64,000 nt of DNA from Punctularia strigosozonata HHB-11173 SS5 (taxonomy: Eukaryota > Basidiomycota > Agaricomycetes > Corticiales > Punctulariaceae): assembly GCF_000264995.1 (NCBI RefSeq), contig NW_006767453.1, positions 78,272 through 142,271 of the forward strand. Direction: 5' to 3'. Below the pieces are notes generated by a model. The model had not been told where the DNA came from. It worked only from the letters and a program-made list of their open reading frames with translations, and did no database searches. Shown piece after piece: positions 21,927 to 40,692 of the stretch. Made by a program: the position numbers and the translations under genes. How positions within the stretch are numbered: the first letter of the stretch is position 1; each line of letters begins with the position of its first letter.

Positions 21927-24129
21927 TCAATCAACCTCGTGGAGCCCGGAAGAGCTATCCGTGAATTCGTCGAGTCGGACGATGACTTGATCTATGGTTG
22001 GACGTTTCGTGGGCTCCTCTTCCCAGCAATCCAACAGAAACTGCCAGAACCCGTCACCCAGCCCCCGTCGCATTACTTCTTCGCCCTCAGGCCGGCGCGG
22101 AAGCTCACCATGAAACTTCGCAACGACCACCCGAGTATCAGAGTAATAATCATATGGAACCACGCCGCTCAGAATCTAACCAATCGTCAGGGATTGTTCA
22201 AGCAGCATATAACTAACATGATGTCACCTCCAGAGCAGTCATGCCGAACGAAAATATATCGACCGGGAAGCGATATTGGGGGATCTCGCCGGGTTTGTCC
22301 ACGACTAGCTCAGGAGCAAGCCATCTGCCACCGTGTTGGTCAATAACGAGCGAATTGGCACGAGCGTGAGTATTCACCTCGCACTCGGCGTTGTTGACAA
22401 AGTGAACTGTGCATCGACAGTATCCGAGATGATCTATGCAAACGCATAAGAAGACCGTAGAATGAGTCGTGGGGGAACTCGCACCTTGGCAAGACCAAAG
22501 TCTGAAATCAGGGGGCGCGGTCTTCCACTTGACGTGTCAATCTGTATCATATCCTGAGGAGACGGACGCTTGCTGATCAACTACCCTGTCAAGTCGTATA
22601 GTGACTGCAACGTACGCCCTGCCGATATTATGGTAAGTGAAAGATCAATCTGTCAGCAATGTGTTGTGGAATTACCCGGAGATATCCATGTACAATTTTG
22701 AGATCATGTAGCACCTTAAGGCAGCGTGCAATGCCTTTGATCTACGAGACATCGATATGGTGTGTCTAGCATGCATGACTGAGCTGCCTTACAAGTTCAA
22801 GTCTGTCGGCATCTGGATGTGCTTCGAGATATTCCACCACGGTACCATCTGGCATGAAGGGGCTGACGATGAACCTATGACCTGATCAGTATTCTCTTCA
22901 GACTCCGGTCATGTGTGGACACACTTACGGTCCAGGTGGGCCATGGCTGTAGCCCCAGTACGGCAAGATGTGCTCGCCTTTATCTGCTGCATAAACCTTC
23001 TTCCAAATACGGCACTCTTCACCGAACCGCTTTATAGGCGTGAACAACGATCTCGGGTTTGCGGGGATATCGAGCCCACCTTGAGGATCTTCGGTTCGTC
23101 TCTCGCGTCTACTCGCATACACTTGAGAATTACCTGCCCTTTTCCAAGATACTCGCCTCGATACCACTCGATGTAACCATTAAACAGGAAGGCGAGCCTT
23201 TCAGAACGTATCTCGTATTCTCCCAACTTGCGAATCTCGTAGTCGTTAAGCTCCGGGTTAGGCAGTCGTTGCTTCACCACCGTTAAGAGGTCGTACAGCA
23301 GGGGCTCCATGTTCTTCACGATTTCGTTATTCTCTCCCACGGAACGCGAAGTCTAGTCAAGCAAGCTTGGTAACGTCGAATGGTAAACAAAGTAGCTTAC
23401 TCACAACCTGAATATGACCAGCCAAATCGTCGATGGCATCCGCGTATATATCTAGACGCTCGCCAATGGAACGCAACTCTCCCAACACCCTGAGCTGATC
23501 ACGTTGCTGCGCTATGTGTAGCTCAATCAACCAGTCCTGGGTATCGAGGTGGGCGACGAGCTGCGGCAAGTGTCAGTACCATAAGCTGCCATCTAAATGT
23601 GCGTCATAGCTACCTGAGCGCGTTGCATCAATTTATCGATACGCTCTGCGTAGCCGTTGATCTCGTTTTCGATGGTCTTCAACCTCGCGAATTGTACGAT
23701 CGTCTTCTTGCTCGTCCACTTCTCCATTGAACGGAGCGCATCTTGTATCAAGCTTTGCGCACGTAAATATCACGATCTTCGCCTGGCATACCCAGATAGA
23801 ACTCACACTTCTATGTCGCGTAATACCCTCTTGAGGCTCCAACTGAAATAACTGATCCGCTCCTGATACTGATTTCGTCTGTGCAAAGCCACCAGTAGTT
23901 CGTTGCACTGCTGAGCCAAGCGTCGCGAGGCCTCCCTGCCGACGATGTTGATAACCTGGTGATTACTTCGGAGACAAAGGGGTGCTGACCTGTTTTCCCC
24001 GACTTTCTCGCACAGCTCTAATAAACTCTGAACCCCCGCCAGTGCAGTAGACAAATAAGGCACGCCAGAGAGGTCTACTGCAGTCTTGGCGACAGCAGTC
24101 GTTGCACGCATACCATAAAGCCAACCCAT
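21927..24129 (-). CDS. MLKL-like helical domain + pseudokinase, K1
   Basis: Multi-exon gene. The N-terminal helical region (TAVDLSGVPYLSTALAGVQS, LLELCEKVGENR, then RRLAQQCNELLVALHRR, IENEINGYAERIDKLMQRAQ and a helix-rich stretch to about 23360) matches the layout of fungal MLKL N-terminal (4HB plus brace) domains. A TKL-type kinase domain follows: KGQVILKCMRV (Lys kept), IWKKVYAADKGEHILPYWGY, LKVLHDLKIVHGYLR (HRD Asp replaced by Tyr), DMIQIDTSSG (HRDxKxxN Asn replaced by Met), ISDFGLAKV (DFG kept), WLAPELV, and the C-lobe tail DCWEEEPTKRPTIDQVIVRL. The catalytic loop contains a 3-nt micro-exon (22616-22618). It is predicted to be catalytically weak or dead. A cell-death role is inference from the family. 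Confidence 0.75.
22616..22618 (-). other. 3-nt micro-exon (Gly) in K1
   Basis: GGC sits between an acceptor (CGGCAG) and a donor (GTACGT). The flanking introns are 22619-22675 (57 bp) and 22554-22615 (62 bp). It supplies the Gly between HGYLR and DMIQI, the position of Gly in HGDIKG of related kinases. Confidence 0.75.
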
Positions 24130-24835
24130 AGTGATGGATAAGTATGCTGACAGAGGGGAAGGGGTGATGAACGAGGATGAGATTCTGGTACCGGATCAGT
24201 CGTCAGATGGTATATAAGATATGAGCGGTGTACTGACAAGCTCCTTGGAAACCTCTTTGTTCTCGGGGGCGCGGAAAGCGCCCCCGAAGGCTGAGTGGAA
24301 GAGTCCGGCTTGACAGGTGATTGAACGCGATAGACCAAAGGGAGTCATCCGAGGGCGCAATGCCGGATTCCGGACGCAGTCCATAAGATGGGTTCTGTAC
24401 CGTACAAGGGGCCGTTTGGTGTGTCCTACGCGTGTTGCTATTGTTCACAGCCCGTCCCAGGCCTCAAGGATGCCCGGAATAGGAAATGCAGTCCTCCAGG
24501 AGCTGATACGGATCACCTCAGACACGCCGCGTGCCATGGTAGAGGTCGTTGGTTTCATGCTGCAGTGCTTTTCACGAGACTCGTTCAGCATATGTGTGTA
24601 GCAGGGAGGCAAGAGAGCGGCCGCCGTGTCTTCAGTGAGGTAGACGGACAACCCCTACCACAGGCCTAGGGTTATGGCTCTAACACGAAGATACTCGTCC
24701 CGACATTGACACCGAGAGCTCACAGGATGTATATTATCATGGTGGTGAGGGTATGCATCGTTCGAGGGGTATTCTACTACGGAAGTCCTGACCCAGGAAC
24801 GTACTGCAGCGCCGCCTAAAATCCGTGACCACTCA
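24130..24835. other. Intergenic between K1 and K2
   Basis: About 700 bp: promoter of K1 and 3' region of K2. No gene recognised. Confidence 0.5.
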
Positions 24836-27005
24836 TTATAGCCGGGCGATCACCTCGTCAATTGTGGGCCGCTTCGTAGGATCCGTTTGCCAACAGTCTA
24901 GAAGGAGGCTCCACAGGGAGTCGTCTAGTCCATTGGCCACCACCTCCGGCTCGGTGGGTTGAGGCGGAAGTTCACCTCTCATCATCTTCGCTAGGAAGGC
25001 TAGATGGAAGGCGTTGTAATTGGAATATGGGTGCTGGCCCGTCATCACCTACGACAGGTCAATCAGTCGAGCAATTTGCCAGCCTTGCTGTGATATTACC
25101 TCGAGTATGGTCATGCCGAAAGCATAAACGTCCGCCGGTGTACTGTATATCTGAGCCTTTGACGCGTTTCCGGCCAAAACCTCGGGGGCAGCCCATCTGT
25201 GAAACACAAAGGAAAGGTCAGTTGGAGAAGCCGATTGTGTTCGTCGTTGTGCGTGCCTAGTAATCTCGTATCCGCGAGAGTCGGTGAATTCCACGATGTT
25301 GTCGACCATCATCTTCAGCCGGCATGAGTCACATGGTGGGATCTCTATTCGGATACTGGGGTCCTCACCTTAGTCAAGCCGAAATCAGAAAGCAAGACTT
25401 TAGGGCTTCCAGTTGACGTGTCTATGCAACATTGAGCCTTGTGTGTCCATCAGCGATATCTCCTTTGCCCGGATTTCTCGATACTCACACCCTACGAGGG
25501 CGTGCGGTCAGTCAAGAATGTACGGAAAAGCGGAGTGACCAACCTGGATATTGCCATGGACTATATCCATGTTGTGAAGTACCCTGATGGCTTGCGCCAG
25601 AGACCTGACCTGTGTGATGGGCGGGTTAACATTGCCGTGAACAAAGTCTCATGCAGCGGCGGATCATCACCAGTTGCATTCGATCTACAGCATTGCCATG
25701 TTTTTCGATATACTCCATGATAGATCCTTCTGGAAAATAAGGACTAAACACGAAACTGGCCCGCAACCGTATCAGATGCGTGGATGTGGAAGTCGGCACC
25801 TTACTCACGGGTGATCGCCATCTTGTCCGTACCCCCAGAAAGGCACTATATGCTCGCCGCTGTCGACTTCGTACACAGCCTTCCATACATCGATTTCCCG
25901 AATGAAGCGCTGATGGACAGTCAGATCGCTGCTCGTGCATGCCTATGCAGTTGAGCCACATACTCGTTTCACTTTGTCGCTCATCTTGCATTGGTGTATC
26001 CGTTTGACAACAACCTCCCCCCTTTCAGTATGGACACCTCTGAAGTTCTCCAAAGCACCATTACAGCTCATAGAAAACGCTTCGATCTGTCGTCGGATGG
26101 TGCTTGCTCCGACACGCATGACTGCTAGTCCACTCCCAGAGAGAGATTCCTGAATGTTGACCAGAACCTCGCTCTGATACTTGTGTTCCTGTGCCGCGAC
26201 CCTCGCGAAGTCCACCAGCTGTCATACAGTCTGTGATTGATTCGCAACATACGCGAGAACGAGACACACCTCGCTAGTCTTCGTTTCCGTGCTCAAGATA
26301 CGGGTCTGAATAGAGACTGTGTTGCGCCCAATCTCGTCCAGTTTCTGTTGCGTACGCTGATCAGCAATTCTTTGTAACAGCTCTCGCTCTTGGCCCTGCT
26401 CGCGCGCGTCGAGCACAGCTATGAGCTGAAATTGTTGAGGTGAGCGACAATGCGCGTACTCGAACGACGTTACGTTACCTGGAACTCGTCGAGGCATGAG
26501 GCGATGCGGTCGTGATATTGTGCAATTTCATCCTCGATAGACCTCTGGCCCGTGAACATTTGCCACCATCTACGACACAGAATCTGTTGCAATTTTCCAT
26601 GAGCGTCCTGGACAATCCTATCGACGATCAGGTCAGCGGACGAAGCATGGGTCAGTATTGGTAATATGTGTACCCGTTGAGGCGCAACACGGCTTCTCCC
26701 ATGTCTGAGTTTCCGTCGATGGGCTTCGCTCCCGTCTTCCTATGAATAGCAATCATGAGGCGGAAGCAATGTTCGCACAGAGCTATTGCCGCTTTTCTGA
26801 GTATCTCGACATTGATCAATACGAGCGTCACCAAGCTGAAGGGCGTAACTCACTTGTTCGCGTCAACTTTGTCGCAAAGATCGAGGATCTTGTCGAGAGT
26901 ACCAATCGCGGGGGCAAGGTACGATATACCGGATAGATCAGCAAAATCTTTGGCGACGCTCAATCCGGCTCGAGCGAAGTGGGTGGTATCGGCCTTGGCG
27001 AGCAT
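24836..27005 (-). CDS. MLKL-like helical domain + pseudokinase, K2
   Basis: Multi-exon gene in tandem with K1 and K3 and much closer to K3. N-terminus: ARAGLSVAKDFADLSGISYL, IGTLDKILDLCDKVDANK, ILRKAAIALCEHCFRLMIAI, SIEDEIAQYHDRIASCLDEF, then a coiled region RIADQRTQQKLDEIGRNTVS. Kinase-like part: ERGEVVVKRIHQCKMSDKVK (Lys kept, no Gly loop), SGEHIVPFWGYG, PYFPEGSIMEYIEKHG, IRVLHNMDIVHGNIQ (catalytic Asp replaced by Asn), AQCCIDTSTGSPKV, LLSDFGLTK, RWAAPEVLAGN, PADVYAFGMTILEV, DCWQTDPTKRPTIDEVIARL. The micro-exon is at 25489-25491. The start MLAKADTTH at 27005 aligns with K3. Confidence 0.75.
25489..25491 (-). other. 3-nt micro-exon (Gly) in K2
   Basis: GGT between acceptor CGTAG and donor GTGAGT. 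The flanking introns are 25492-25543 (52 bp) and 25438-25488 (51 bp). Splicing yields HGNIQ-G-AQCCI, which keeps the spacing of related kinases. Confidence 0.72.
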
Positions 27006-27480
27006 GACGGGATTGTATTTTGAGCGTACGGAGGGGGCTTGATTCTAGCAATGAGACGGGATGACCTCCGACGTGAGCGTTCTTATAGAGTTAGGCCTCC
27101 GCTGTACGGCGCATCCCAATCGTGATTCCGTTAGCGATGACACGGGTATTGCTCCGCCGTGGATCACGTCCCGCGATACGAGCGTATGCGGATCACCAAC
27201 AGCCGCCCACAATACAACAAAGCTATGAAGCAGACAACCTCTTTCCCAACAGAGGACAGCGCGGGTTTCTATGCGGTAACGAGCCTGGCATGTCGAGAAC
27301 CTTTCGGACAATGGCTTAGTTGGGTGGCACTCTGCGCTCTGCGTGGTTGAGTGAGTCCAAGGACAAAGGACAAAGTGGCATCGGAGTCAAAGTACAAAGG
27401 GAGACAAAGAGCATCGCGGCGCGCCGTCGTTGCGTGTCTCGAGCTTCCACCAGTCTCGTTGACCTAAAAATAGCCTATGC
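27006..27480 (-). promoter_or_regulatory. K2 upstream region homologous to that of K3
   Basis: Elements shared with the K3 upstream region: CTATAAGAACGC near the start site, GGACAGCGCGGGTTTCTATG (about 27256), AAAGCTATGAAGCAGACA (27219-27236), and TTGACCTAAAAATAGCCTA (about 27459-27477). Their order and spacing match K3, so the promoter was duplicated with the gene or is under constraint. Confidence 0.65.
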
Positions 27481-27946
27481 CCAGTGGGTACCATTTCGGC
27501 GTTTACTTGCTTCCGCACAATCAGCCAGGAATCAGAGAGGGACAGCTTTGATTTCGGAAATTATACGTATACCTTTCAGCGCACTCGTTTCAACTCCGCG
27601 CTTTTCTTACTCTCTTTACGTATCTTGCAAGCTCAGACACCGCGTTCGATATGCATGATATGTCGCACGATCGTTGCGATCATGTTGTGGCACCTTAAGC
27701 TTGTTCGAGACTCTTTTAGTCTGCGTAGCGAAGTGATATACGTAGTGAGAGGCAAATGGCACAAGAGACACGACAGAGTTGCTTGTCCAGGTACCGGTGT
27801 AAGTATGTACGGCTATGGGACGTATCACGGGTATAGTATGCTACGCTAACAAGTCATGGAGACTGGCCGTACTTATTCTATGTGGACGAGAAGGGATGTA
27901 TTGTACGCAACGAAAGTCCCTTCCGTTATATGGCTCGTAACATCGC
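27481..27946. other. Intergenic between K2 and K3
   Basis: Distal part of the roughly 940 bp between K2 and K3. Nothing recognised. Confidence 0.45.
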
Positions 27947-30129
27947 TCATAGTCGAGTGACAACCTCGTCGATGGTGGGCCGCTTCGCGGAATCCCTCTG
28001 CCAGCAATCCCACAGGAGATTCCACAGAGCATCGTCTAGCCCATTGGCCACCACCTCCGGATCTGTGGGTCGTTGCGGTAGTTCATCTTCTTTCACCTTC
28101 GCTATGAAGGCCCTCTGCGGTTTGGTATAATTTGAGTATGGCTGTTGACCCGTCATCACCTATAAGGTGTCAGCGATCGATGCGACCTCAGACCGGGTTG
28201 CGGCCTTACCTCGAGTATAGTCATGCCCACAGCATAGACGTCCGCCGGTGTGCTGTATATCTGAGTTTCTGTCTGGTCAAAATCCACAATCTCAGGAGCA
28301 GCCCATCTGTGCAAACAAGAACGAAGTGAAAAAGACAGTGGTTCTGGTTCGTCAGAGGTGCATACCTAGTGATCTCATATCCACAGGAATTGGTGAACTC
28401 CAGCATGTTGTTGGCCATCACCTACATTCAGTATCAGTTGTACGATCATAGCTCGTCATTGCTTGATAATGTCGTTCGCACCTTAGCCAGCCCGAAGTCA
28501 GCGAGCAAGACTTTTGGACTCCCTGTCGACGTGTCTATGAGACATGTAGACTTGCGTACTCATGAGCGATACTATAGTCGCAGGAATGTGACATTACTTA
28601 CACCCTATCACGAGAAACATCAGACAAGGCCGCACCGAGAACACGAATGACTCACCTGTATATTACCATGGACTATCTTCATGTCGTGGAGTACCTTGAC
28701 ACTTTCCGCGATAGACCGAATCTGTCGCACGGGGAAAGTCAGCCTCGCGGTAAGCACATAACGATCAAGCGAGGGATTTCAATTACCAGATGCCTACGAT
28801 CAACATCACTGTGTTTCCGGATGTAGTCCATGATGGACCCTTCTGGAAGATAAGGGCAAAACACAAATCTAGCCCGCGAGAGTATTCAGTGTGTGGATGA
28901 AACGAACTTGGAATCCGACTCACGGGTGCTCGCTATACTCCCCGTACCCCCAGTAAGGTAGTATATGTTCGCCGCCGTCGATTTCGTACACGGCCTTCCA
29001 TAAGGTGATTTCCCGAGCGAAGCGCTGGCACAAATGTTGAGCTGTAGCACTCGCGTGCTCATACGATTATACGACATACCCGTTTCACCTTGTCATTCAT
29101 CTTGCATTGACGTATCCACCTTACAACCACTTCCCCCTTTTCGCTGTGCAACCCTCTGTAATTATCTATGGCACCATTCCAGCTCATAGAGTACGCTTCG
29201 CCCTTGCGTTGGATGGTGCTTGCGCCAACGCGCATGACCATCAGTCCACTCCCAGAGATAGATTCCTGTATGCTGAATAGAACCTCGGTCTGGCGCTTCT
29301 GCTCGTCCACAGCAACTTTCGTGATGTCAGTCAGCTATCAAGCATCTTCAGCCTGGGTGCAACGTGGCAGAAGATTGAGCGTACCTCGCTGGTCTTCGTT
29401 TCCGTGTTCACGACACTTGCATGAATGGCCACAGTGTTGTGCCCAATTCGGTCCAGTTTTTGGTGGGTGCGCTTATCGGCAATCCTCTGTAGCAGCGCCC
29501 TCTCTTCATCCTGCTCACGCGCGTCTAGCACTGCGATGAGCTGGGGTGCTGGATATCAGCAAACAATGTGACTATCGAAGGGGCGAGACCGTACATGGAA
29601 CTCATCGAGGCATGTGGTGATTTGTTCACGATATTGTGCGATATCGTCCTCGATTGACTTCTGCCGCAGGAACTTGTACCACTTCTTACGTTCGATGATC
29701 TGTTTCAAGTCGCGATGAGCGTTCTCGACGATTCTATCAACTATGCGGTGAGCGGACAGAAAGGCATGACAATCGCGTTCAGTGTATGCACCCGTTAAGA
29801 CGTGACACAGCTGCTTCCATGTCCGAGTTCTCATCGATGCGATTTCCCCCAAGCCTCCTATGAATAGCAATCATGAGGCGGAAGCAATGTTTGCATAGGG
29901 CTATTGCTGCTTTCCTGTAGATGTCAGAATTGATCAGCATCATCATCGCGGAGCTGGAGCTGGAAGGAAGGACTCGCTTGTTTGCTTCGACCTTGTCACA
30001 AAGCTCAAGTATCTTGTCCAGCGTACCGATGACGGGAGCGAGGTAAGATATTCCCGACAGATCAGCGAAGTCCTTGGCAATGTTCAAACCAGCTCGAACC
30101 AAGTGGCTAGTATCAGTTTTGGCGGACAT
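27947..30129 (-). CDS. MLKL-like helical domain + pseudokinase, K3
   Basis: Closest paralog of K2. N-terminus: VRAGLNIAKDFADLSGISYL, IGTLDKILELCDKVEANK, RKAAIALCKHCFRLMIAIHR, SIEDDIAQYREQITTCLDEF, then coiled RIADKRTHQKLDRIGHNTVA. Kinase-like part: KGEVVVRWIRQCKMNDKVK (the VAIK Lys is Arg), VKVLHDMKIVHGNIQ (Asp replaced by Asn), STCLIDTSTGSPKV, LLADFGLAK, RWAAPEIVDFD, and NLLWDCWQRDSAKRPTIDEV. Two of the three core catalytic residues are therefore altered, making it the clearest pseudokinase of the set. The micro-exon is at 28602-28604. Starts at MSAKTDTSH, directly comparable with K2. Confidence 0.75.
28602..28604 (-). other. 3-nt micro-exon (Gly) in K3
   Basis: GGT between acceptor GATAG and donor GTAAGT. 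The flanking introns are 28605-28655 (51 bp) and 28551-28601 (51 bp). The spliced product reads HGNIQ-G-STCLI. Confidence 0.72.
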
Positions 30130-30576
30130 GGTGAGGAAGTATTTCGGCGGACGATACTGCTAGTGAGAAGATAGGATGACCTTGATCTTGAACGCTCTTA
30201 TACAGCGAACCTTGTGGGCGCAACTACGAAGTAATGAAGACACCCCTGCGTTACCAGGCCAGCCCAATCACGCGTCCTAGGCAAAGCATACGTCCCGATT
30301 ATGCTCTGGATCGATCCCGCGACATGAGCGGGGAGGGTAAAGGAGTCTCAAGGACCAACAAAAGCTATGAAGCAGACAGCATTGTGCGCGAGGGTGGACA
30401 GCGCGGGTTTCTATGCAGTCCTCGAGCATGGCAGTGCGTTGTACTTTGAATGATGATAATGTGTCCGAGTGGGTCCATGGACAAAAGACAAAGAGGCGAA
30501 AGCCGCATGGGATGAGAGTACAAGACAGAGGAACGCAAGCGCCGTCTCGGGTCCTATTGACGTAAAAATAGCCTAC
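30130..30576 (-). promoter_or_regulatory. K3 upstream region homologous to that of K2
   Basis: Contains TATAAGAGCG close to the gene, AAAGCTATGAAGCAGACA (30361-30378), GGACAGCGCGGGTTTCTATG (about 30398) and TTGACGTAAAAATAGCCTA (30557-30575), in the same order as upstream of K2. The last motif lies about 430-450 bp before each ATG. Confidence 0.65.
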
Positions 30577-30669
30577 GGTCGGCAAATAACAATCCAGCTG
30601 CATTACTTTGCTTCCGGAACATGAACAAAGGATAGCTTTGCGCTCGATGTACGGTTGGCTATGCAATTC

Positions 30670-31626
30670 TCAGTGTACTCGCTTCGACTCCGCGCTTGTC
30701 CGACACTCTTCTCGTGCCTTGAGCTCGAACTGTTTCCGCCACCGTTTCCATTCTTCGTCGGTTCCTCCATCACCATACACAGCCCACCCGTCACGTATGC
30801 GAAGCCACTGAGCAAGTGGATGATCCAGTAAGGCAGTCCTTAGGGTCTTGAGCGGTGAGGGTGATGGACGCGTTGGGATGAGCTCTACCACGGTATAGAA
30901 GGCTGTTCCGCACAAAGCGCCGATGATCAAACCCCAGACGATCTGGTGAGGTGTGTGATACCCGAGATGATAACTACATGCCCGTGATGAGAAATTTGCC
31001 GTGCAAATCACGAATATGGGGCGCACCGAGAGTAGGCAACCACCCCTGCCCAGCATATTAGTCCAAGGCATACCAAGGGCTTGAGCAAACGGTCCAGGAG
31101 GCGGATTCCTGAGGGCGGGAACCGATGCCGGATGTAGAGGTGACATATCAGGAAGGATACGAAGTATCCCATGTATTGACTATGCGAAGAGGGAAAGCCA
31201 TATCCCGGTCCCATTTCTGCATTGCACAGCGTAAGTAGGCTGGAATTCCCTTGGTGATTTAGACCGACGCACCCATAGGACGATCCTGCTTGATTATGTG
31301 CTTCAATACGAAGTTAAAGCCTTCGCACGCGAACTGTCCTGCCCACATCAGGATTATGGTTAACTCTCGCGTCTGGACCGCTAATGCTGCATACGAGGCC
31401 TGTTCAATAAGTGTGGTGCTCCCCGACAGCACGCTCGGACAACGCACCATCAGGAGGACGGGACTAAGAGTGATCAAAGCGAGAACTAGCGAGAGATGCG
31501 AGGTATCATCGTCTGCAACTCCCGGTCAGAAAACTACGGCGTGAACGGAAGGTCGGCTTTCCTGGACATACATACTACATGTGTTAGATCCAGAGATGCA
31601 CGCGACGCCGGAAGGACGTCGGTCAT
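30670..31626 (-). CDS. CWH8: Dolichyldiphosphatase (PAP2 family)
   Basis: ER membrane phosphatase that recycles dolichyl diphosphate to the monophosphate after N-glycan transfer. Exon 1 (ATG at 31626) gives SRASLDLTHV, continuing to DDTSHLSLVLALITLSPVLL, IILMWAGQFACEGFNFVLKH and IIKQDRP. Next is GYGFPSSHSQYMGYF (the PAP2 PSGH-like motif), then AGVVAYSR spliced to YHLGYHTPHQIVWGLIIGAL (SR-x5-H motif). Four or more TM helices. The hydrophilic tail ends KAREECRTSAESKRVH. Length about 250 aa as in the family. The exon 1 donor was placed at the GTATGT that restores frame. Confidence 0.88.
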
Positions 31627-32372
31627 GTTCAGCCGTTGACGACCACAAGTCTCTTCGCTCAAGACACCGAATGTGAGATATACGCGCTGGCGTGTCGATG
31701 GCAAGCGCAGTGGAAGAGGCGGAGGGTGATCACGCGCTTGGCCAAAGCTCGACGACCGACCGACGACGAGAGCTCAGGCTTTGACGGTCACGACCATCGA
31801 TGCTTCTTCTTACGCGACGAATCCCTGCAATCAACGGATCTGGCATACTTAAGAGACCCGACACGTACCCCAAAGTCTCATTCTGTTGGCGAAGGCCATC
31901 TACCCTCGAATTCGCACCATGGGACCCGCAACCGCCGCCCGCTGACGTGTCGTTTCCTTGGACGACATGGACCGACTCCGTCTTCATTGCTGTTCTAGGT
32001 CACCGCAGAAGAGCTACCAGGATAAGATCTTTTGGAACAAATGCGGATAGACTTCGGCAGCGACGCCGGATCTCCCTAAGTACAGCTGTGTTCTGGCGCT
32101 CTTCGACGAGCTATATGACCTTCTTTGCGCCGTTCTATTCGTAACTGCAGTCATCAGGTCTTGAAGACTCCGCACCTTACCGTACAGAAGCGATGCCCAC
32201 CACTCGCGAGTCCCGAGATCTCATCGAAGGCCAATAGGAGACGATGTGCTCATCCTGGTGGTCTGGAGGCAACGTCCGTCTGTTATTCTCATGCTGTGTG
32301 GTGCTCGTTATATAGGATCAAGTTGACGTTCGAAGAGCCTCAGCCAACAACCTTGCCTCCTGCAGGTCCGAA
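31627..32372. other. Intergenic, divergent promoters
   Basis: Between the divergent CWH8 and GH74 genes. Open frames on both strands at about 31636-31998 have no recognisable content and are not called. Confidence 0.5.
32309..32315 (+). promoter_or_regulatory. TATA box of the GH74 gene
   Basis: TATATAG lies 58 bp before the initiating ATG at 32373. Confidence 0.65.
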
Positions 32373-35339
32373 ATGATGTTCACGGCCGCACTTCTGTCAG
32401 TTGCCCCTTTGGCATTCGCGGCATTGGTAGATGCCATCGTAACTCAAGGCTCGTACACATGGAAGAACGTCAAAATTGGTGGAGGCGGAGGTCGGCCAGC
32501 AAAAAGAGTCTGCGCATATATGCTGATGACGTAGCCAATAGGTTTCGTCCCCAACATCGTCTTCAATACCGAAGAAAAAGGCCTCGCATACGCCAGGTAA
32601 GTTCGCCATTCATACTCAGTCGTCTATATGCCAAAATTGTAATCATACAGGACCGATATTGGCGGTGTTTATCGGCTGAACCCAGACGATTCATGGACAC
32701 CTTTGACCGACTTCGCCAATGATACCTACTGGGGGTTCTGGGGCTCGGGTGGGTGGACAGCTCACTGATCCTATCATATCCTTCGGCTTATCCCAATCAT
32801 GGACGTCAGATGCTCTGGCCACCGATCCTGTGGACCCCAATAACTTGTACATCGCTACTGGCATGTACACTAACTCTTGGGTTCGTCCATGGGGGGATCT
32901 TGGGAACACCTTCGTCTCATGTCGTTCTTCAGGACCCCAACAACGGTCATATTCTCAAGTCGACGAACCGCGGCGCATCGTTTACTGCATTCCCTCTTCC
33001 CTTCAAGGTGAGACATGATCTGATTGGGGGCTATACCTCCTGCTTATCTCAGAATAGGTCGGTGGAAACGATCCCGGACGAGGCATGGGCGAGCGTCTTG
33101 CGATAGACCCGAATAATGTTAGTGAATCGTCATATTATTCGTTGTACGTGTCGCGTGAATTCTGTATAGAACAAGATCCTGTTTTTTGGAGCACGTTCAG
33201 GCCACGGCCTTTGGAAATCGACCAATTCCGGAGAAACTTGGACGAATGTCACATCCTTTCCATCTGTCGGCACCTATGTTCAGGATCCGACGGATCCTTC
33301 CGGACTGGGAAGCGACATCATGGGCATCGCTTGGGTCACCTTCGATCACGTCTCCGCTGACTCCAAGACCTCGACCGGATCTAAACGCATCTTTGTCGGT
33401 GTTGCTAACATGGGTGCGGACAACGTCTTCGTCAGCGAGGACGCCGGAGTTACGTGGAAAGCTGTCTCTGGCCAGAACTCGACCTTCATCCCGCATCACG
33501 GTGTCTTGAGTCCCAAAGAGGGCCCTGCTCTGTACCTGCCCTACGCTAACGGCATGTGAGTCTTTACCCGTCTCTTCAATACAACGAAAGTATAGCTCAG
33601 TCCTTGCGACAGTGGCCCTTACGACGGTACCGCCGGTTACGTGAAGAAGTACTTCATCAATAACAGTACTTGGGTCGACATCACTCCTGCTCAAGGCATC
33701 GCGGACAACGCTTATGGCTACGGTGGTCTCTCTGTCGACTTGCAAAGGCCGGGTACGGTGATGGTCGCACCCCTCAATGAATGGTACCCGGATGCCGAGT
33801 GAGTGCGCTAACTTGTCTATGTGTCAAGCTGGCTCCTTAACATGGCGGTATAGCATCTACCGTAGCACCGACGGCGGTAATTCGTGGACCGGACTCTTTA
33901 CGACGAGTTACCCACCTCCCGACTATCAGCTCTTCGTCAATCGCTCTTATAATTACGATGTTAGCAAAGCGCCTTGGATCACGACCTTTGCGACGGGAGA
34001 TACTAAGCACATCGGTAATGTGATCTTGTTCACCATTCAGCGCCGTCATTGAACCATTTCTCTTCCTTCAGGATGGATGATCGAGGGCCTCTCGATTGAT
34101 CCTTTCGATTCTGTATGTCGCATCGTGGGCTGACCAATATCGTACTGATCGGACAATACTCGTCAGAACCACTGGTTGTACGGTACCGGGTTGACACTCT
34201 ATGGCGGACACGATCTCCTAAATTGGGACGCTGCCCCTCGCAAGAATGTCACGGTCGCGAGCCTGGCAGACGGAAGTGCGTAGAATTCTGCAACCCTCAC
34301 TTATGTCAGCATTCATGACCTTGATAGTCGAGGAAACTGCGGTTCAGGGCCTATCGGCTCCTCTCAGTGGCCCTCTCCTATTGAGCGCTGTTGGCGATGT
34401 CGGTAAGTAAACCGACCATTAGTTGTCATCTCATCAACTCAGCCTTGAGCCTTGGATAGGTTCTTTCCGTCACACCTCTTTGACCACTCCACCTACGGAG
34501 AATGCAAACCCGATATGGGCAGGAGTAAGTCCTTTTACCCCTTGCGAGAATGTCCCTGATGCCAGTCATAGACCGCTTCTGATGTTGACTACGCCGGTGG
34601 TGCCCCTTCTAACCTCGTGCGTCTGGCGGGCATCGCTGGCCAACCGATCGCCACGAGTAACGACAGCGGCGTCACCTGGACTCCTCTTTCGACCGCATCG
34701 AGTACGGCGTCCGGCGGCAAGATTGCAATCTCTGCGGATGGCTCGACCATCGTTTGGTCCCAGGCGTCGGGCTTGAGCGGACCGCAATACTCTGCGAACG
34801 GCGGGGCCTTTGCAGCCCCGGCAGGCTTGCCTTCATCGGCGCTCGTCGTAGCCGACAAGCTCAACACATCCGTGTTCTATGCCATATCCGGGAAATCGTT
34901 CTATGTATCCGCCGACGGTGCCAAGACGTTTACCCAGACCTCCACCCTCGGCACCGCCCAGTCTTCCACCGCGATCGCTGCGTCCCCGTTCAAAGCAGGA
35001 GAGCTGTTCGTCTCTACCTCCGCGGGCGTCTTCCATTCAACGGATTTCGGCAAGACTCTTACCAGCATACCCGGCGCAACGAACGCCTGGGACATCGCCG
35101 TGGGTGTGCCCAAGACGAAGAGCGCGAGGACGCCGCCGGTGCTCTTCGCTTCGGCGACCATCTCGGGTGTCAACTCCGTTTACCGCACGGATGATCTCGG
35201 CGCGAACTGGGTAAAGGTGGCGGATGTCGCGCATGGCTTCGGGTCCGCATCTGGCTTGGTTTTGGCGGCGGATGCGAGAGTGTATGGGCGCGTATTTGTG
35301 GGGACGAACGGGCGAGGTATATTCTACGGAGAAGTCTAA
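32373..35339 (+). CDS. GH74 xyloglucanase, secreted
   Basis: Extracellular xyloglucan-degrading glycoside hydrolase family 74 (endo- or reducing-end-specific beta-1,4-glucanase) acting on plant cell walls. A signal peptide (MFTAALLSVAPLAFA) is followed by YTWKNVKIGGGG, GLAYARTDIGGVYRLNPDD, SWTPLTDFAND, VDPNNLYIATGMYTNSW, GHILKSTNRGASFTAFPLPF, GMGERLAIDPNN, RIFVGVANMGADNVFVSEDA, STDGGNSWTGLF, NPIWAG, VRLAGIAGQPIATSNDSG and VFVGTNGRGIFYGEV at the C-terminus. Repeated S-x-D-x-G-x-x-W segments mark the two seven-bladed propellers. About ten short introns interrupt it; for example GTTCGTCC..CTTCAG after the MYTNSW segment restores frame. No C-terminal CBM1 is present. Confidence 0.92.
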
Positions 35340-35973
35340 GCTCTATAGGTACCTGGATGGAACGTGCTCTGCGCCATCGTCAATCATTCAGGTATTGTCC
35401 GTCTGTCTCTCGACTTCGTATATACACCTATGTTGGTTTGGAGCGCACGTTTGAGAATATGCCACTGGTGCGGTACCTGGAAGTTTCTCCGGCGAATACG
35501 TGGGGGTTCCTCGGTAAGCACGATTGTCCGATCTGCAAGCCCCTTAGGCAAGTGCAGAAGGTTGCGATATCTGATGGAATGGTCGTACATGGCGTTCCCC
35601 TTGGATAGCTGCTGTAGTGCCTGCAACTAGTTTTAAGCGAGTTGTCTCGCGATCGTGCTTAAGGACTAGGTGCTGCGTAGCTGCCAGCGTCTGCATCGGC
35701 AAGTTCCGCATCTGTCTAAAGAGTGCCCTCATTCTCAGGGCGAGCGCCGGTCTTGCCGCAGGTCCTCTTCACGGTGATATCTCCATGCTGGTCGTCCACA
35801 TCCGCCTTTCTTCCAACAAACAGGAACAAATGAACCGTAGATGTGATGTCGGCCGGATCGATCTGGGATCGGCGCCACATCACATGCATGGCCGGCCCAG
35901 TTGACATCATATCAGAGGCGAACATAAAGTCATCGTGCAAACGTTCCTCGTCCCTACTCAACTTTCGTCTACG
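35340..35973. other. Intergenic
   Basis: 634 bp between GH74 and PGM, including the PGM promoter. No gene recognised. Confidence 0.5.
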
Positions 35974-38041
<2,068 letters not shown>

Positions 38042-38558
38042 TTCGTGGAACGACACGGGGTAATTCGGATATAAAGTGTACCATAATCTCCTATACTTGT
38101 GGATCTCAGTAGCATACGGCATATCTGCTTTGCGCCGATTTGGGCCGCAGGAGCTTTGAGGAGTTCACATGTCACGCTGTCACAATACGCGTTCATCCGT
38201 TCCACGCATCACGAATGAAGAGATGACGACCCGCCTTGCCCTTGAACTTACTCTAAAGCTGAAGCTATGATGTTGAACGCGGATACTACGTCGGGACTCA
38301 AAGAACTTAATGCGGACGTTCCCGTGGTCTCACACAAGCTATCGCCTTCGCGACATGAAATCAGGCGTCTATCAAGCATTGCCCCCACTCTTCGCACCGT
38401 CCCATGAATGATGCCCTTATAGGGCAGAATGCTGCATCAGTAGGCTTTAGAAGCGTCAAAGCAATGCATACAGCCAGCTATCCCTTTGCATAAGTAGTCG
38501 ACAGCGATCCCCGATATCCATAGGACACCGTAGCTCCTCTCGAACGGATTACATCGCT
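38042..38558. other. Intergenic
   Basis: 517 bp between PGM2 and K4, containing the K4 promoter. No gene recognised. Confidence 0.5.
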
Positions 38559-40692
38559 ATGAAGGGCGCAAACGCTACCTTCGTCGCTGAGACCACGTTT
38601 ACACTCACTGCCATCGCTGCTGAGCTCTCGGCAGTGCCGTACTTGGGAGCGGTGGTGGGCGGCCTACGGGAGATCCTGGCACTTTGCGACAATGTGCGGC
38701 TTAATAGGTGATTACTTGTGACTGGAACTTGAAGCCATGCCGAATTCTGACTTTTCCTCCCTCGGTCGTTAGGAACGCGGCAGCTCAGCTTGCATTAAGA
38801 TGTGGTCTATTGGCTGAAGCGCTGTACCAGAGCAACGGGAACAAACAGTTCAATTCAAGCGACGTTGACATGAATGCTGCGCTTGCTCGTGTCGAATCGT
38901 GGGCAACGTCCTATCCGAAAACAGAATTCACATTGACTACTATCAACAGGGAGATCCTTCATATAAGGGACAGGATGATGAAATGGCGCGACTGGAACAC
39001 GCTGAAGAACTTCGTGAAGCAGAAGGAGATCAAGGAGGAGATCGATGATTCTAACGCAGCGCTGAGTGCGTGTGCAGAAAGCCTTTTCGTAAGCGACGAA
39101 CTATGACATAGAGGGCGAGCCTGGCTGAATGACCTCGAAATCTAGCTCACCTCACATCTTCAAATGCATCAGATGCAGAGCGATTTCACGGCGGTGCACG
39201 CTATCGACCGGATGGAATTGTTCGCGGCGTTGAACCGGTTAGAAGCACAAGGGGAGGAAACCAACAATCAAGTGTTTGTAATCATGAATTCTGTCCAGCA
39301 GGAGGTACGCGCATGCGACGAAACACCGAGCCTGCCGCTGAACAATTGCTAGATTCTTCCTTCGTTGTCGAGGGGCGATCTGCGACTGACGGAGATATTG
39401 AGGCTCTTGTTCGACCTACAGACGAAGTACGAGCAGCTGCTGCCTAACATGAATCTTAACCACGGTGAAGTGGTCCGCCTGCAGGACGGTAGCCAGGCTC
39501 AGCGGTTCACGACCCCGGTCAAGGGCAGCGCAAACATGGATGTGTACGAGGGGAGGTACCTCGACAACTGCAAGGTTGCGCTCAAGACGATCCGGTCGTT
39601 CCTCACGGGCCCGAAGAGCCTGCAGGTGAATCGTTTCTAGGAATTCTTGCATATCGGTCGTTAAATCGTATGCAATAGCGCTTCCAACGCGAGGTGGGTC
39701 TATGGCAAAAGGTTTGGAGCGTCGACAAGGGGAGGCACATACTGCCTGTTTATGGGTATTCGGAAGGACAAGGGCATCCGTCAGTCTCTGCCAGGTCTAG
39801 GTCATTCTCGCATCTCACTGGCACCTCCAGATTTGTCGTCAGTCCTTGGCAAGAGAACGGGACAGTCATGGACTATACGAGAAAGTACGACAACCAGGTC
39901 GATTTCCGGACCATGGTAAGTGACGGGACGCTCTGTACCTCAGCACCCTGGAACGCATTGATAACAATTTTTCTAACATAGATCAAGGAAATAGCAGAGG
40001 GGATCGCTGTTCTTCATGGCATGACACCTCCAGTTGCTCACGGAGACATAAAGGTACGTTATCACTTTTCCATCGTGATATCGAATCGCTCATGAAGCGC
40101 TTATTTTAGGGAGTACGTATCAACATACGATCTTGTTCGTATCGAATCTGAACTCCGACAGGATAACATCTTGATCTCCCTCTCCGGACACCCGCTTCTC
40201 TCCGATTTCGGCCTAGCGAAGGTCATTGAGGACGTCACCGGCGCGCCAATCACCAGTACGGGCAGCTCCAACAGCGCGAGGTGGGATATTCAGTTTGCTT
40301 TGCTCGCTCGATCTCACTCTGAAGGATGATTAGGTGGTTCGCTCCGGAGCTTTTTGAGGGTGATTCGACGCTTAACCTCAGCGCGGACATTTACGCATTC
40401 GGAATGACTGTGCTTGAGGTCGGTATCCTCGTTGAATCATGAACACGCGCATTACTGAGACTCGTGATGTCGCCGCGCTTAGATTTTCACCGGCTCGAAC
40501 CCCTACAGCACCATCAAGCGCGACACGGAGGTGATCATCAAGAAGCACCACGGTATGAAGCCGGTTCGACCTACAGACGACAAGACAGTCAGCCGCGGGT
40601 TGGATGATAACCTGTGGGAGCTCCTGCTTTGGTGTTGGGAATCTCCACCTGCGAAACGGCCGACGATCTCGCAAGTGCTCGAGCGCCTCTGA
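38559..40692 (+). CDS. MLKL-like helical domain + protein kinase, K4
   Basis: Fourth member of the family, on the opposite strand. N-terminus: AIAAELSAVPYLGAVVGGLR, EILALCDNVRLNR, then AAQLALRCGLLAEALYQSNG and WNTLKNFVKQKEIKEEIDDS, a helical bundle plus brace layout. Kinase domain: YLDNCKVALKTIRSF (Lys), VWSVDKGRHILPVYGYSEG, PWQENGTVMDYTRKYD, GIAVLHG, VAHGDIKG-DNILISLSGHP (catalytic Asp and Asn kept), LLSDFGLAKVIED, ARWFAPELFEG, DIYAFGMTVLE, WELLLWCWESPPAKRPTISQ. All core residues are kept, so it should be active. The micro-exon is at 40110-40112. A role in regulated cell death is inferred only from domain layout. Confidence 0.8.
40110..40112 (+). other. 3-nt micro-exon (Gly) in K4
   Basis: GGA between acceptor TTATTTTAG and donor GTACGT. 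The flanking introns are 40054-40109 (56 bp) and 40113-40161 (49 bp). It supplies the Gly of the near-universal fungal HGDIKGDN loop; skipping it would give HGDIKDN. Confidence 0.8.

What the first reader, a model, noticed from the sequence alone, without database searches (positions are those of the whole stretch)
22554..40161. A 3-nt micro-exon conserved in the catalytic loop of four kinase-like genes
In K1, K2, K3 and K4 the catalytic loop is split by two short introns with a single Gly codon between them: GGC (22616-22618), GGT (25489-25491), GGT (28602-28604) and GGA (40110-40112). Flanking introns are 57/62, 52/51, 51/51 and 56/49 bp, all of normal size here, and every micro-exon has AG before and a good GT donor after. 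Splicing it in gives HGDIK-G-DN in K4, HGYLR-G-DM in K1 and HGNIQ-G-xxC in K2/K3, the exact spacing of related fungal kinases. The codon is kept while the rest of the loop has diverged, so the structure predates the duplications. Exons this short are rare and are missed by most gene finders.
Basis: partly seen in the sequence, partly recalled or inferred. Interest (0 to 1): 0.85.

Follow-up and report, generated by a model that had tools for sequence, protein, structure and literature searches.

The report
Three-letter exons inside kinase genes
In a wood-rotting mushroom, four related kinase genes each appear to carry a three-letter exon, one single amino-acid codon lying between two tiny introns at the heart of the kinase; the public gene models get this spot wrong, but exons this small are known elsewhere, so it is a striking new case of a known kind.

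Summary
In K1-K4 (Punctularia strigosozonata HHB-11173 SS5) the catalytic loop is cut by two normal-sized introns (49-62 nt) with one Gly codon between (GGC, GGT, GGT, GGA) at the stated coordinates. No single canonical intron gives the kinase spacing (HxxxK + two residues + N) in any of the four; two introns around GGN do, uniquely in three, while K4 has one other, worse path. None of the four public models has the codon as a 3-nt exon: K4 skips it, K3 uses a 7-nt exon, and K1 and K2 need non-canonical introns with exactly three extra bases, as a cDNA holding those bases would give if aligned without a micro-exon. Of 58 other-species homologues, 56 keep two residues there. In this genome 58 motif places carry only the downstream intron (53 near a kinase hit), two kinases read carry only the upstream one, and a fifth (K5, L081) has both around a 2-nt exon that its frame requires. 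So a second intron probably landed 3 nt from an old loop intron. No RNA was available. K1-K3 look like pseudokinases, perhaps MLKL-like.

The parts
22616..22618 (-). K1 micro-exon GGC (Gly)
   Evidence: unique canonical two-intron path, HGYLR-G-DMIQID
22619..22675 (-). K1 upstream intron (57 nt, GTAATT..CGGCAG)
22554..22615 (-). K1 downstream intron (62 nt, GTACGT..CCTCAG)
25489..25491 (-). K2 micro-exon GGT (Gly)
   Evidence: HGNIQ-G-AQCCID
25492..25543 (-). K2 upstream intron (52 nt, GTTGGT..TCGTAG)
25438..25488 (-). K2 downstream intron (51 nt, GTGAGT..CACAAG)
   Evidence: acceptor scores below all 38 other introns
28602..28604 (-). K3 micro-exon GGT (Gly)
   Evidence: HGNIQ-G-STCLID
28605..28655 (-). 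K3 upstream intron (51 nt, GTGAGT..TGATAG)
28551..28601 (-). K3 downstream intron (51 nt, GTAAGT..CGCAAG)
   Evidence: the public model P0121 fits GGTGTAA|GTAATG and CATAG|ACACG instead
40110..40112 (+). K4 micro-exon GGA (Gly)
   Evidence: HGDIK-G-DNILIS
40054..40109 (+). K4 upstream intron (56 nt, GTACGT..TTTTAG)
40113..40161 (+). K4 downstream intron (49 nt, GTACGT..CGACAG)
21927..24129 (-). K1 gene, 13 exons, 519 aa, HGY in place of HRD (predicted pseudokinase)
   Evidence: differs from public model P0230 at one residue only, the loop Gly
24836..27005 (-). K2 gene, 13 exons, 504 aa, HGN (predicted pseudokinase)
   Evidence: differs from public model P0122 at one residue only, the loop Gly
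27947..30129 (-). K3 gene, 13 exons, 503 aa, HGN and VVVR (predicted pseudokinase)
   Evidence: matches public model P0121 except in the loop
38559..40692 (+). K4 gene, 11 exons, 523 aa, HGD..N..DFG intact
   Evidence: public model P0001 (426 aa) lacks the Gly, 82 N-terminal residues and 17 more, and has 3 extra residues before WFAPE

Best explanation
Each gene carries a constitutive 3-nt coding exon, a single Gly codon of the kinase catalytic loop, flanked by two short introns. The downstream intron (phase 0, right after the residue that follows the loop Lys/Arg) sits at a position shared by dozens of kinase genes in this genome. A second intron was gained 3 nt upstream, between the Lys/Arg/Gln codon and the Gly codon, probably before K1-K4 arose by duplication in the Punctularia lineage. 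The two introns are most likely removed one at a time by intron definition, because a 3-nt exon cannot hold splicing factors at both ends at once. The product then keeps the exact H-x-x-x-K-G-x-N spacing. Shown: the sequence, splice sites, frame, spacing and paralogue states. Inferred: inclusion in mRNA, order of splicing, timing of the gain.
For: Coordinates and sites. Exhaustive path search: no one-intron solution in 5 of 5 genes (K1-K5), one two-intron solution in 4 of 5 and two in K4. Intron lengths and shuffles. Public models P0230 (K1) and P0122 (K2) match the hand models along their whole length except one residue, the loop Gly, where each can only be made by extending the upstream exon by three bases (or an equivalent shift) into a non-canonical intron. 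The extra bases fit the upstream side better (1/3 and 2/3 matches) than the downstream side (0/3), as expected if a cDNA with GGC or GGT was aligned without a micro-exon (by eye). 56 of 58 other-species homologues (P0002-P0059) have exactly two residues between K and N. The nine of these on contigs of 1028-2458 nt, whose ORF fills 61-95% of the contig, are probably cDNA; nine of nine keep the residue. In K5 the outer exons are out of frame without the 2-nt exon. Four Gly codons of three kinds (GGC, GGT, GGT, GGA) survive in proteins 30-69% identical. 58 motif places carry only the downstream intron (reversed-pattern control 0; 53 lie near a kinase hit); of the held loci, 23 places read this way with donor and acceptor, 2 have only the upstream intron (L087, L083) and 21 have no intron there.
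Against: No RNA reads or cDNA of this species could be examined. Micro-exon donors are below the median of this gene set, the K2 upstream donor ranks at the 8th percentile, and the K2/K3 intron-2 acceptors score lowest of all. The public K4 model skips the codon with a canonical 108-nt intron, and K3's public model fits a 7-nt exon with canonical sites. How the public models were made is inferred, not documented. K1-K4 as one branch has only 83/72 support.
Confidence: 0.9

Rival explanations
1. One long intron, no micro-exon: the outer exons are joined directly and the proteins lack the Gly, as in the public K4 model.
For: Canonical GT-AG ends and an open frame in K1-K4; the public K4 model P0001 has exactly this.
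Against: Spans of 105-122 nt lie far outside the 48-66 nt of the 38 other introns. The loop would lose a residue that 56 of 58 homologues keep and misplace the metal-binding Asn of K4 (role of the Asn recalled). The AG-GGN-GTRNGT core inside each span is not expected by chance. In K5 direct joining breaks the frame. P0001 has other differences: missing N-terminal parts and three extra residues before WFAPE.
Confidence: 0.04
2. A different small exon in one copy: K3 uses GGTGTAA (7 nt) with the acceptor CATAG|ACACG, as in the public model.
For: Public model P0121; both introns canonical; it puts an Asn at the N position, and the AAG acceptor of the 3-nt model is weak.
Against: It deletes the hydrophobic strand after the loop that K1 (IQI), K2 (CCI) and K4 (ILI) keep; the donor GTAATG departs more from the usual form than GTAAGT; the 69% identical K2 has the same alternative acceptor, yet its public model keeps AQCC, i.e. 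the AAG acceptor.
Confidence: 0.12
3. Regulated micro-exon: inclusion or skipping of the codon is a frame-neutral switch of loop geometry and, in K4, of kinase activity.
For: Skipping keeps the frame in K1-K4; donors are sub-optimal; 3-bp alternatively spliced micro-exons are described in fungal Tuber NLR genes (PMC10197012, passage).
Against: No isoform data. The codon is kept in K1-K3, which lack the catalytic Asp. In kinases with a single loop intron the residue is part of a larger exon and always included.
Confidence: 0.06

Closest known systems
Codon-sized (3-bp) micro-exons of the Tuber melanosporum NACHT-ANK genes (Iotti et al. 2012; not read, seen only as cited in passages of PMC4986451, PMC3689799, PMC10197012)
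   Same: Fungus, one-codon exons, a gene family discussed in connection with recognition
   Different: There tens of micro-exons are alternatively spliced to vary a sensor domain; here one fixed codon of a catalytic loop appears constitutive. Phylum differs (Ascomycota against Basidiomycota; recalled).
1-nt exon of Arabidopsis APC11 (PMC4674806, abstract and introduction) and 1-15-nt plant micro-exons (PMC8831610, passages)
   Same: Constitutive ultra-short exon needed for the correct protein; public annotation wrong; copies with and without the flanking introns
   Different: Plants, conserved over many species, RNA-proven. In Chlamydomonas kinase domains are among the top motifs coded by micro-exons (PMC8831610).
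3-nt exons of mouse Ncam and Drosophila TnT (PMC8042270, passages) and hth (PMC7392893, search listing)
   Same: Exon of one codon
   Different: Animals; the Drosophila cases are alternatively spliced
Small exons in Phanerochaete chrysosporium P450 genes (PMC1184071, passages)
   Same: White-rot basidiomycete with frequent 45-55 bp introns; shortest exon 6 bp
   Different: 6 bp or longer, spread over many positions, not one conserved codon
Xlr2 micro-exon of Trichoderma virens (PMC11121469, abstract and passages)
   Same: Micro-exon in a filamentous fungus; that paper says functional ones had not been described before in filamentous fungi
   Different: A regulated switch in a transcription factor gene of an ascomycete (phylum recalled)
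Spliceosomal twin introns (stwintrons; PMC12403724 and others, search listing and starts of abstracts)
   Same: Two adjacent fungal introns removed in succession
   Different: A stwintron leaves no exon between its parts; here a codon is kept

Membership tests
Coding micro-exon (3 nt) | AG before and GT after the exon, both flanking introns of normal size | tested here: met
   4 of 4 genes
Coding micro-exon (3 nt) | Needed for the correct frame or protein spacing, no simpler canonical splicing | tested here: met
   no one-intron path in 4 of 4; K4 has a second two-intron path with worse sites
Coding micro-exon (3 nt) | Present in mature mRNA of this species | not testable with these tools
   no RNA held; only indirect support from the non-canonical public models of K1 and K2
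Regulated (alternatively spliced) micro-exon | Inclusion varies between tissues or conditions | not testable with these tools
   no RNA held
Stwintron | One intron interrupts a splice signal of another and no exon remains between | tested here: not met
   each intron has its own canonical ends and a codon remains
Tyrosine-kinase-like / protein kinase (PF07714) | Kinase domain above the Pfam cut-off | tested here: met
   80.8-112.6 bits in K1-K4 (cut-off 23.1)
[quoted passage not shown]
   K3 22.5 bits, below the cut-off 27; no match at E<=0.001 in K1, K2, K4 (the K1 of that call still held 18 residues of an intron; public K1 P0230 is precomputed as having PF22215). 22 of 56 aligned family members match PF22215 at E<=0.01, best 1e-15, which row not shown. 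N-terminal part of the K2 model all helical. Fold lists were filled by kinase domains
MLKL (mixed lineage kinase domain-like) | C-terminal pseudokinase (lost catalytic Asp) | tested here: met
   K1 HGY, K2 and K3 HGN; not K4, which keeps HGD
MLKL (mixed lineage kinase domain-like) | Membrane permeabilisation and cell death on activation | not testable with these tools
   needs an experiment

The most novel reading that the evidence does not exclude
The catalytic loop of these fungal kinases is an intron hot spot where 2-3-nt exons arose more than once (K1-K4 at 3 nt, K5 at 2 nt), and frame-neutral inclusion or skipping of the Gly codon is used in K4, an MLKL-like protein, as a splicing switch between an active and a dead kinase in a cell-death or recognition pathway.
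Probability: 0.06. Interest if true: 0.82.

Novelty: new member of a known kind. Interest (0 to 1): 0.5.

Why it matters
It gives a clear, testable case of one-codon exons (and one probable two-base exon) in a basidiomycete, in the most conserved motif of a large kinase family, with relatives carrying each of the two introns alone. That makes it a natural experiment on how ultra-short exons arise and how intron definition handles them. It also shows that public kinase models in fungi can be wrong at the catalytic site, which misleads calls of active and dead kinases. RT-PCR would settle it.

Tried and rejected
A stwintron reading was rejected because a codon is left between two self-sufficient introns. 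A chance AG-GGN-GT inside one intron was rejected by shuffles and lengths. That the other-species homologues also carry the micro-exon is unproven: their models are nearly all correct here (56 of 58), which would be surprising if they had it, but I searched no fungal DNA outside this genome; P0039 (Lentinula) has an insertion right after the residue, consistent with a mis-placed acceptor of a downstream intron.

Search for an intron directly after K: 8 places, reversed-pattern control 8, so chance level overall; K2, K3, K4 and C11:1204073 (K5) are kinase-like, the other four were judged by their motif only, and K1 is missed because its donor is GTAATT. Wider search: 24 places, control 11. Besides K4 and K5, six were read: two are kinase loops with the upstream intron alone (L083 CDK-like HRDLK|PQN; L087 HGDFK|AANVL) and four (L082, L084, L085, L086) show no kinase loop. 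One (C1:2225471) lies inside an unbroken kinase match, and the remaining 15 are at least 21 kb from every kinase hit that I copied and were not read. The hit lists are not complete ('more matches are not listed', best candidates only). Of the 58 places, 53 lie within 1.2 kb of a kinase hit and 5 do not. K5 could be a decaying gene: only 801 bases were read.

Fold searches returned kinase domains; no MLKL row was among the 50 shown in either list, which excludes nothing. The second structure job was not used. Literature: 10 searches; no listed title or passage that I saw was of a 3-nt exon in a basidiomycete kinase, but the library holds open-licence papers only and most listed papers were not opened.
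Full report
What was checked. The four places were read from the window and full gene models were built by hand and corrected. K1-K3 lie on the minus strand, K4 on the plus strand.

Is it real splicing anatomy? Across the four models, the 38 introns other than the eight in question are 48-66 nt long (mean 55.3, s.d. 4.7). The spans between the outer loop exons are 122, 106, 105 and 108 nt, i.e. two introns' worth, and cutting out GGN gives introns of 49-62 nt. The core YAG-GGN-GTRNGT occurred in 0, 0, 1 and 0 of 5000 dinucleotide shuffles of the spans of K1, K2, K3 and K4; the looser AG-GGN-GT in 0.74, 0.44, 0.46 and 0.02%. An exhaustive listing of canonical paths found no single intron that leaves two residues between the loop Lys/Arg/Gln and the Asn-equivalent in any of the genes. 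Exactly one two-intron path exists in K1, K2 and K3. K4 has two: GGA, and a worse TAC. Against this: the micro-exon never ends in G, so its donors score at the 11th-39th percentile of the other 38; the K2 upstream donor scores at the 8th; and the intron-2 acceptors of K2 and K3 score below all of them.

The public models. The genome is Punctularia strigosozonata HHB-11173 SS5: public proteins of that name, 95-99% identical to the hand models, lie on a contig of 371046 bases, the length of the window's contig C21. K1 (P0230) and K2 (P0122) differ from the window's spliced protein at one residue each, the loop Gly, which is Val there. K3 (P0121) differs only in the loop: HGNIQ-GVNTSTG, which fits a 7-nt exon GGTGTAA and another acceptor. 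K4 (P0001) reads HGDIK-DNILI, a skipped codon, and also lacks N-terminal parts and has three extra residues before WFAPE. The Val of K1 and K2 can only be made with a non-canonical intron and three extra exon bases. Ab initio predictors avoid such introns (recalled). A transcript with three extra bases aligned without a micro-exon would give just this, and the three bases fit the upstream side better than the downstream side (by eye). I take this as indirect transcript evidence for K1 and K2; how those models were made is not documented here.

Homologues. Of P0002-P0059, 56 of 58 have exactly two residues between K and N; P0039 has an insertion and P0055 was not matched by the expression. In P0016 and P0048 the expression caught the first of two kinase loops. 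The residue is A 42, G 8, C 3, V 2 (the two rows just named), S 1. Nine of the 58 (P0006, P0007, P0028, P0029, P0046, P0047, P0054, P0058, P0059) sit on contigs of 1028-2458 nt of which their reading frames fill 61-95%, so they are probably cDNA; nine of nine keep the residue. They suggest that mature mRNAs of relatives keep the codon, not that they have a micro-exon.

Where the two introns come from. A scan of the same genome found 58 places with the motif HGx-x-x plus one small residue, then GTNNGT, i.e. no intron before the residue and a donor after it (control 0); 53 lie near a kinase hit, 5 do not. The residue there is G 19, A 14, C 13, S 12. Among the held loci, which were picked as kinase hits and are not a random sample, 23 distinct places read this way with both donor and acceptor, 21 have no intron in the loop, and 2 have only the upstream intron: L087 (HGDFK|AANVL) and the CDK-like L083 (HRDLK|PQN). 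Both introns together were found in K1-K4 and in one more gene, K5, at C11:1204073 (L081): HGDLK|57 nt|GG|52 nt|G-NNVLIN. Its micro-exon is 2 nt, and joining the outer exons directly is out of frame. K5 lacks the R|W intron that K1-K4 share, so it is not simply one more copy; a second origin of the upstream intron, or an old one lost elsewhere, are both open.

Age. K1-K4 are 30-69% identical to each other. In a 36-row tree, 18 other-species relatives form one clade (98/97), K1-K3 another (100/99), and K1-K4 join with weak support (83/72); the program warns of long branches among the outer rows. With the shared R|W intron, one gain of the upstream intron before the K1-K4 duplications is the simplest account. 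This species' branch showed numerous specific intron gains and losses in an amylase gene (PMC3584928, passages).

What the genes are. All four match PF07714 and PF00069. K4 keeps HGD, N and DFG. K1 (HGY), K2 (HGN) and K3 (HGN, and VVVR at the beta-3 lysine; motifs recalled) look like pseudokinases, yet keep the Gly. The N-terminal part is helical (model of K2, mean pLDDT 81.6). K3 scores 22.5 bits against MLKL_N, below the cut-off of 27; the other three gave no match in that call, while public K1 carries the domain in the precomputed list and 22 of 56 family members match it at E<=0.01. This suggests an MLKL-like architecture, helical bundle plus (pseudo)kinase, without proving it. Fungal HeLo domains are described as homologues of the MLKL bundle (PMC10197012, passages); a survey of early-diverging fungi reports MLKL homologues only in Glomeromycotina among those (PMC8778642, passages). 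Function remains inference.

How it most likely works. Each intron has its own donor and acceptor and normal length, so intron definition can act on each in turn. A CTNAY branch-point match lies in range in 6 of the 8 (not in intron 2 of K4 or K1; it is also missing in 16 of the other 38). Three bases are too few for both spliceosome halves at once (recalled), so removal is probably sequential. Either order leaves all sites intact (inference).

Novelty. Exons of 1-3 nt are known in plants and animals (PMC4674806 abstract; PMC8831610 and PMC8042270 passages) and 3-bp micro-exons in Tuber (PMC10197012 and PMC4986451 passages; the original was not read). A one-codon exon at a kinase catalytic loop kept in four basidiomycete paralogues, with a 2-nt counterpart, did not show in the listings of my ten searches. 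It is a new member of a known kind, of moderate interest, and easy to settle with RNA.

Noticed in passing
L081 (G000 C11:1204073-1204215): Fifth kinase (K5) with a probable 2-nt micro-exon GG between introns of 57 and 52 nt in the same catalytic loop; intron 2 is in phase 2.
   Followed up: partly
window 25197-25256 and 29915-29977: Two GC-AG introns, in K2 and K3 at different positions; the public proteins agree with these boundaries.
   Followed up: partly
window 21927-30129: K1, K2, K3 have lost the catalytic Asp (HGY, HGN, HGN) and K3 also the beta-3 Lys: a tandem of predicted pseudokinases with possible MLKL-like architecture.
   Followed up: partly
window 38559-40692: Public K4 model P0001 also lacks N-terminal parts and has three extra residues before WFAPE, apparently from another acceptor.
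   Followed up: partly
L087 (G000 C12:22170-22440): Kinase with a single intron directly after the loop Lys (HGDFK|AANVL), the position of the upstream micro-exon intron alone.
   Followed up: yes
window about 32300-35340 and 35900-37790, plus strand: Reading frames that look like a xyloglucanase-type glycosidase and a phosphoglucomutase lie between K3 and K4 (names recalled from the letters, not searched).
   Followed up: no
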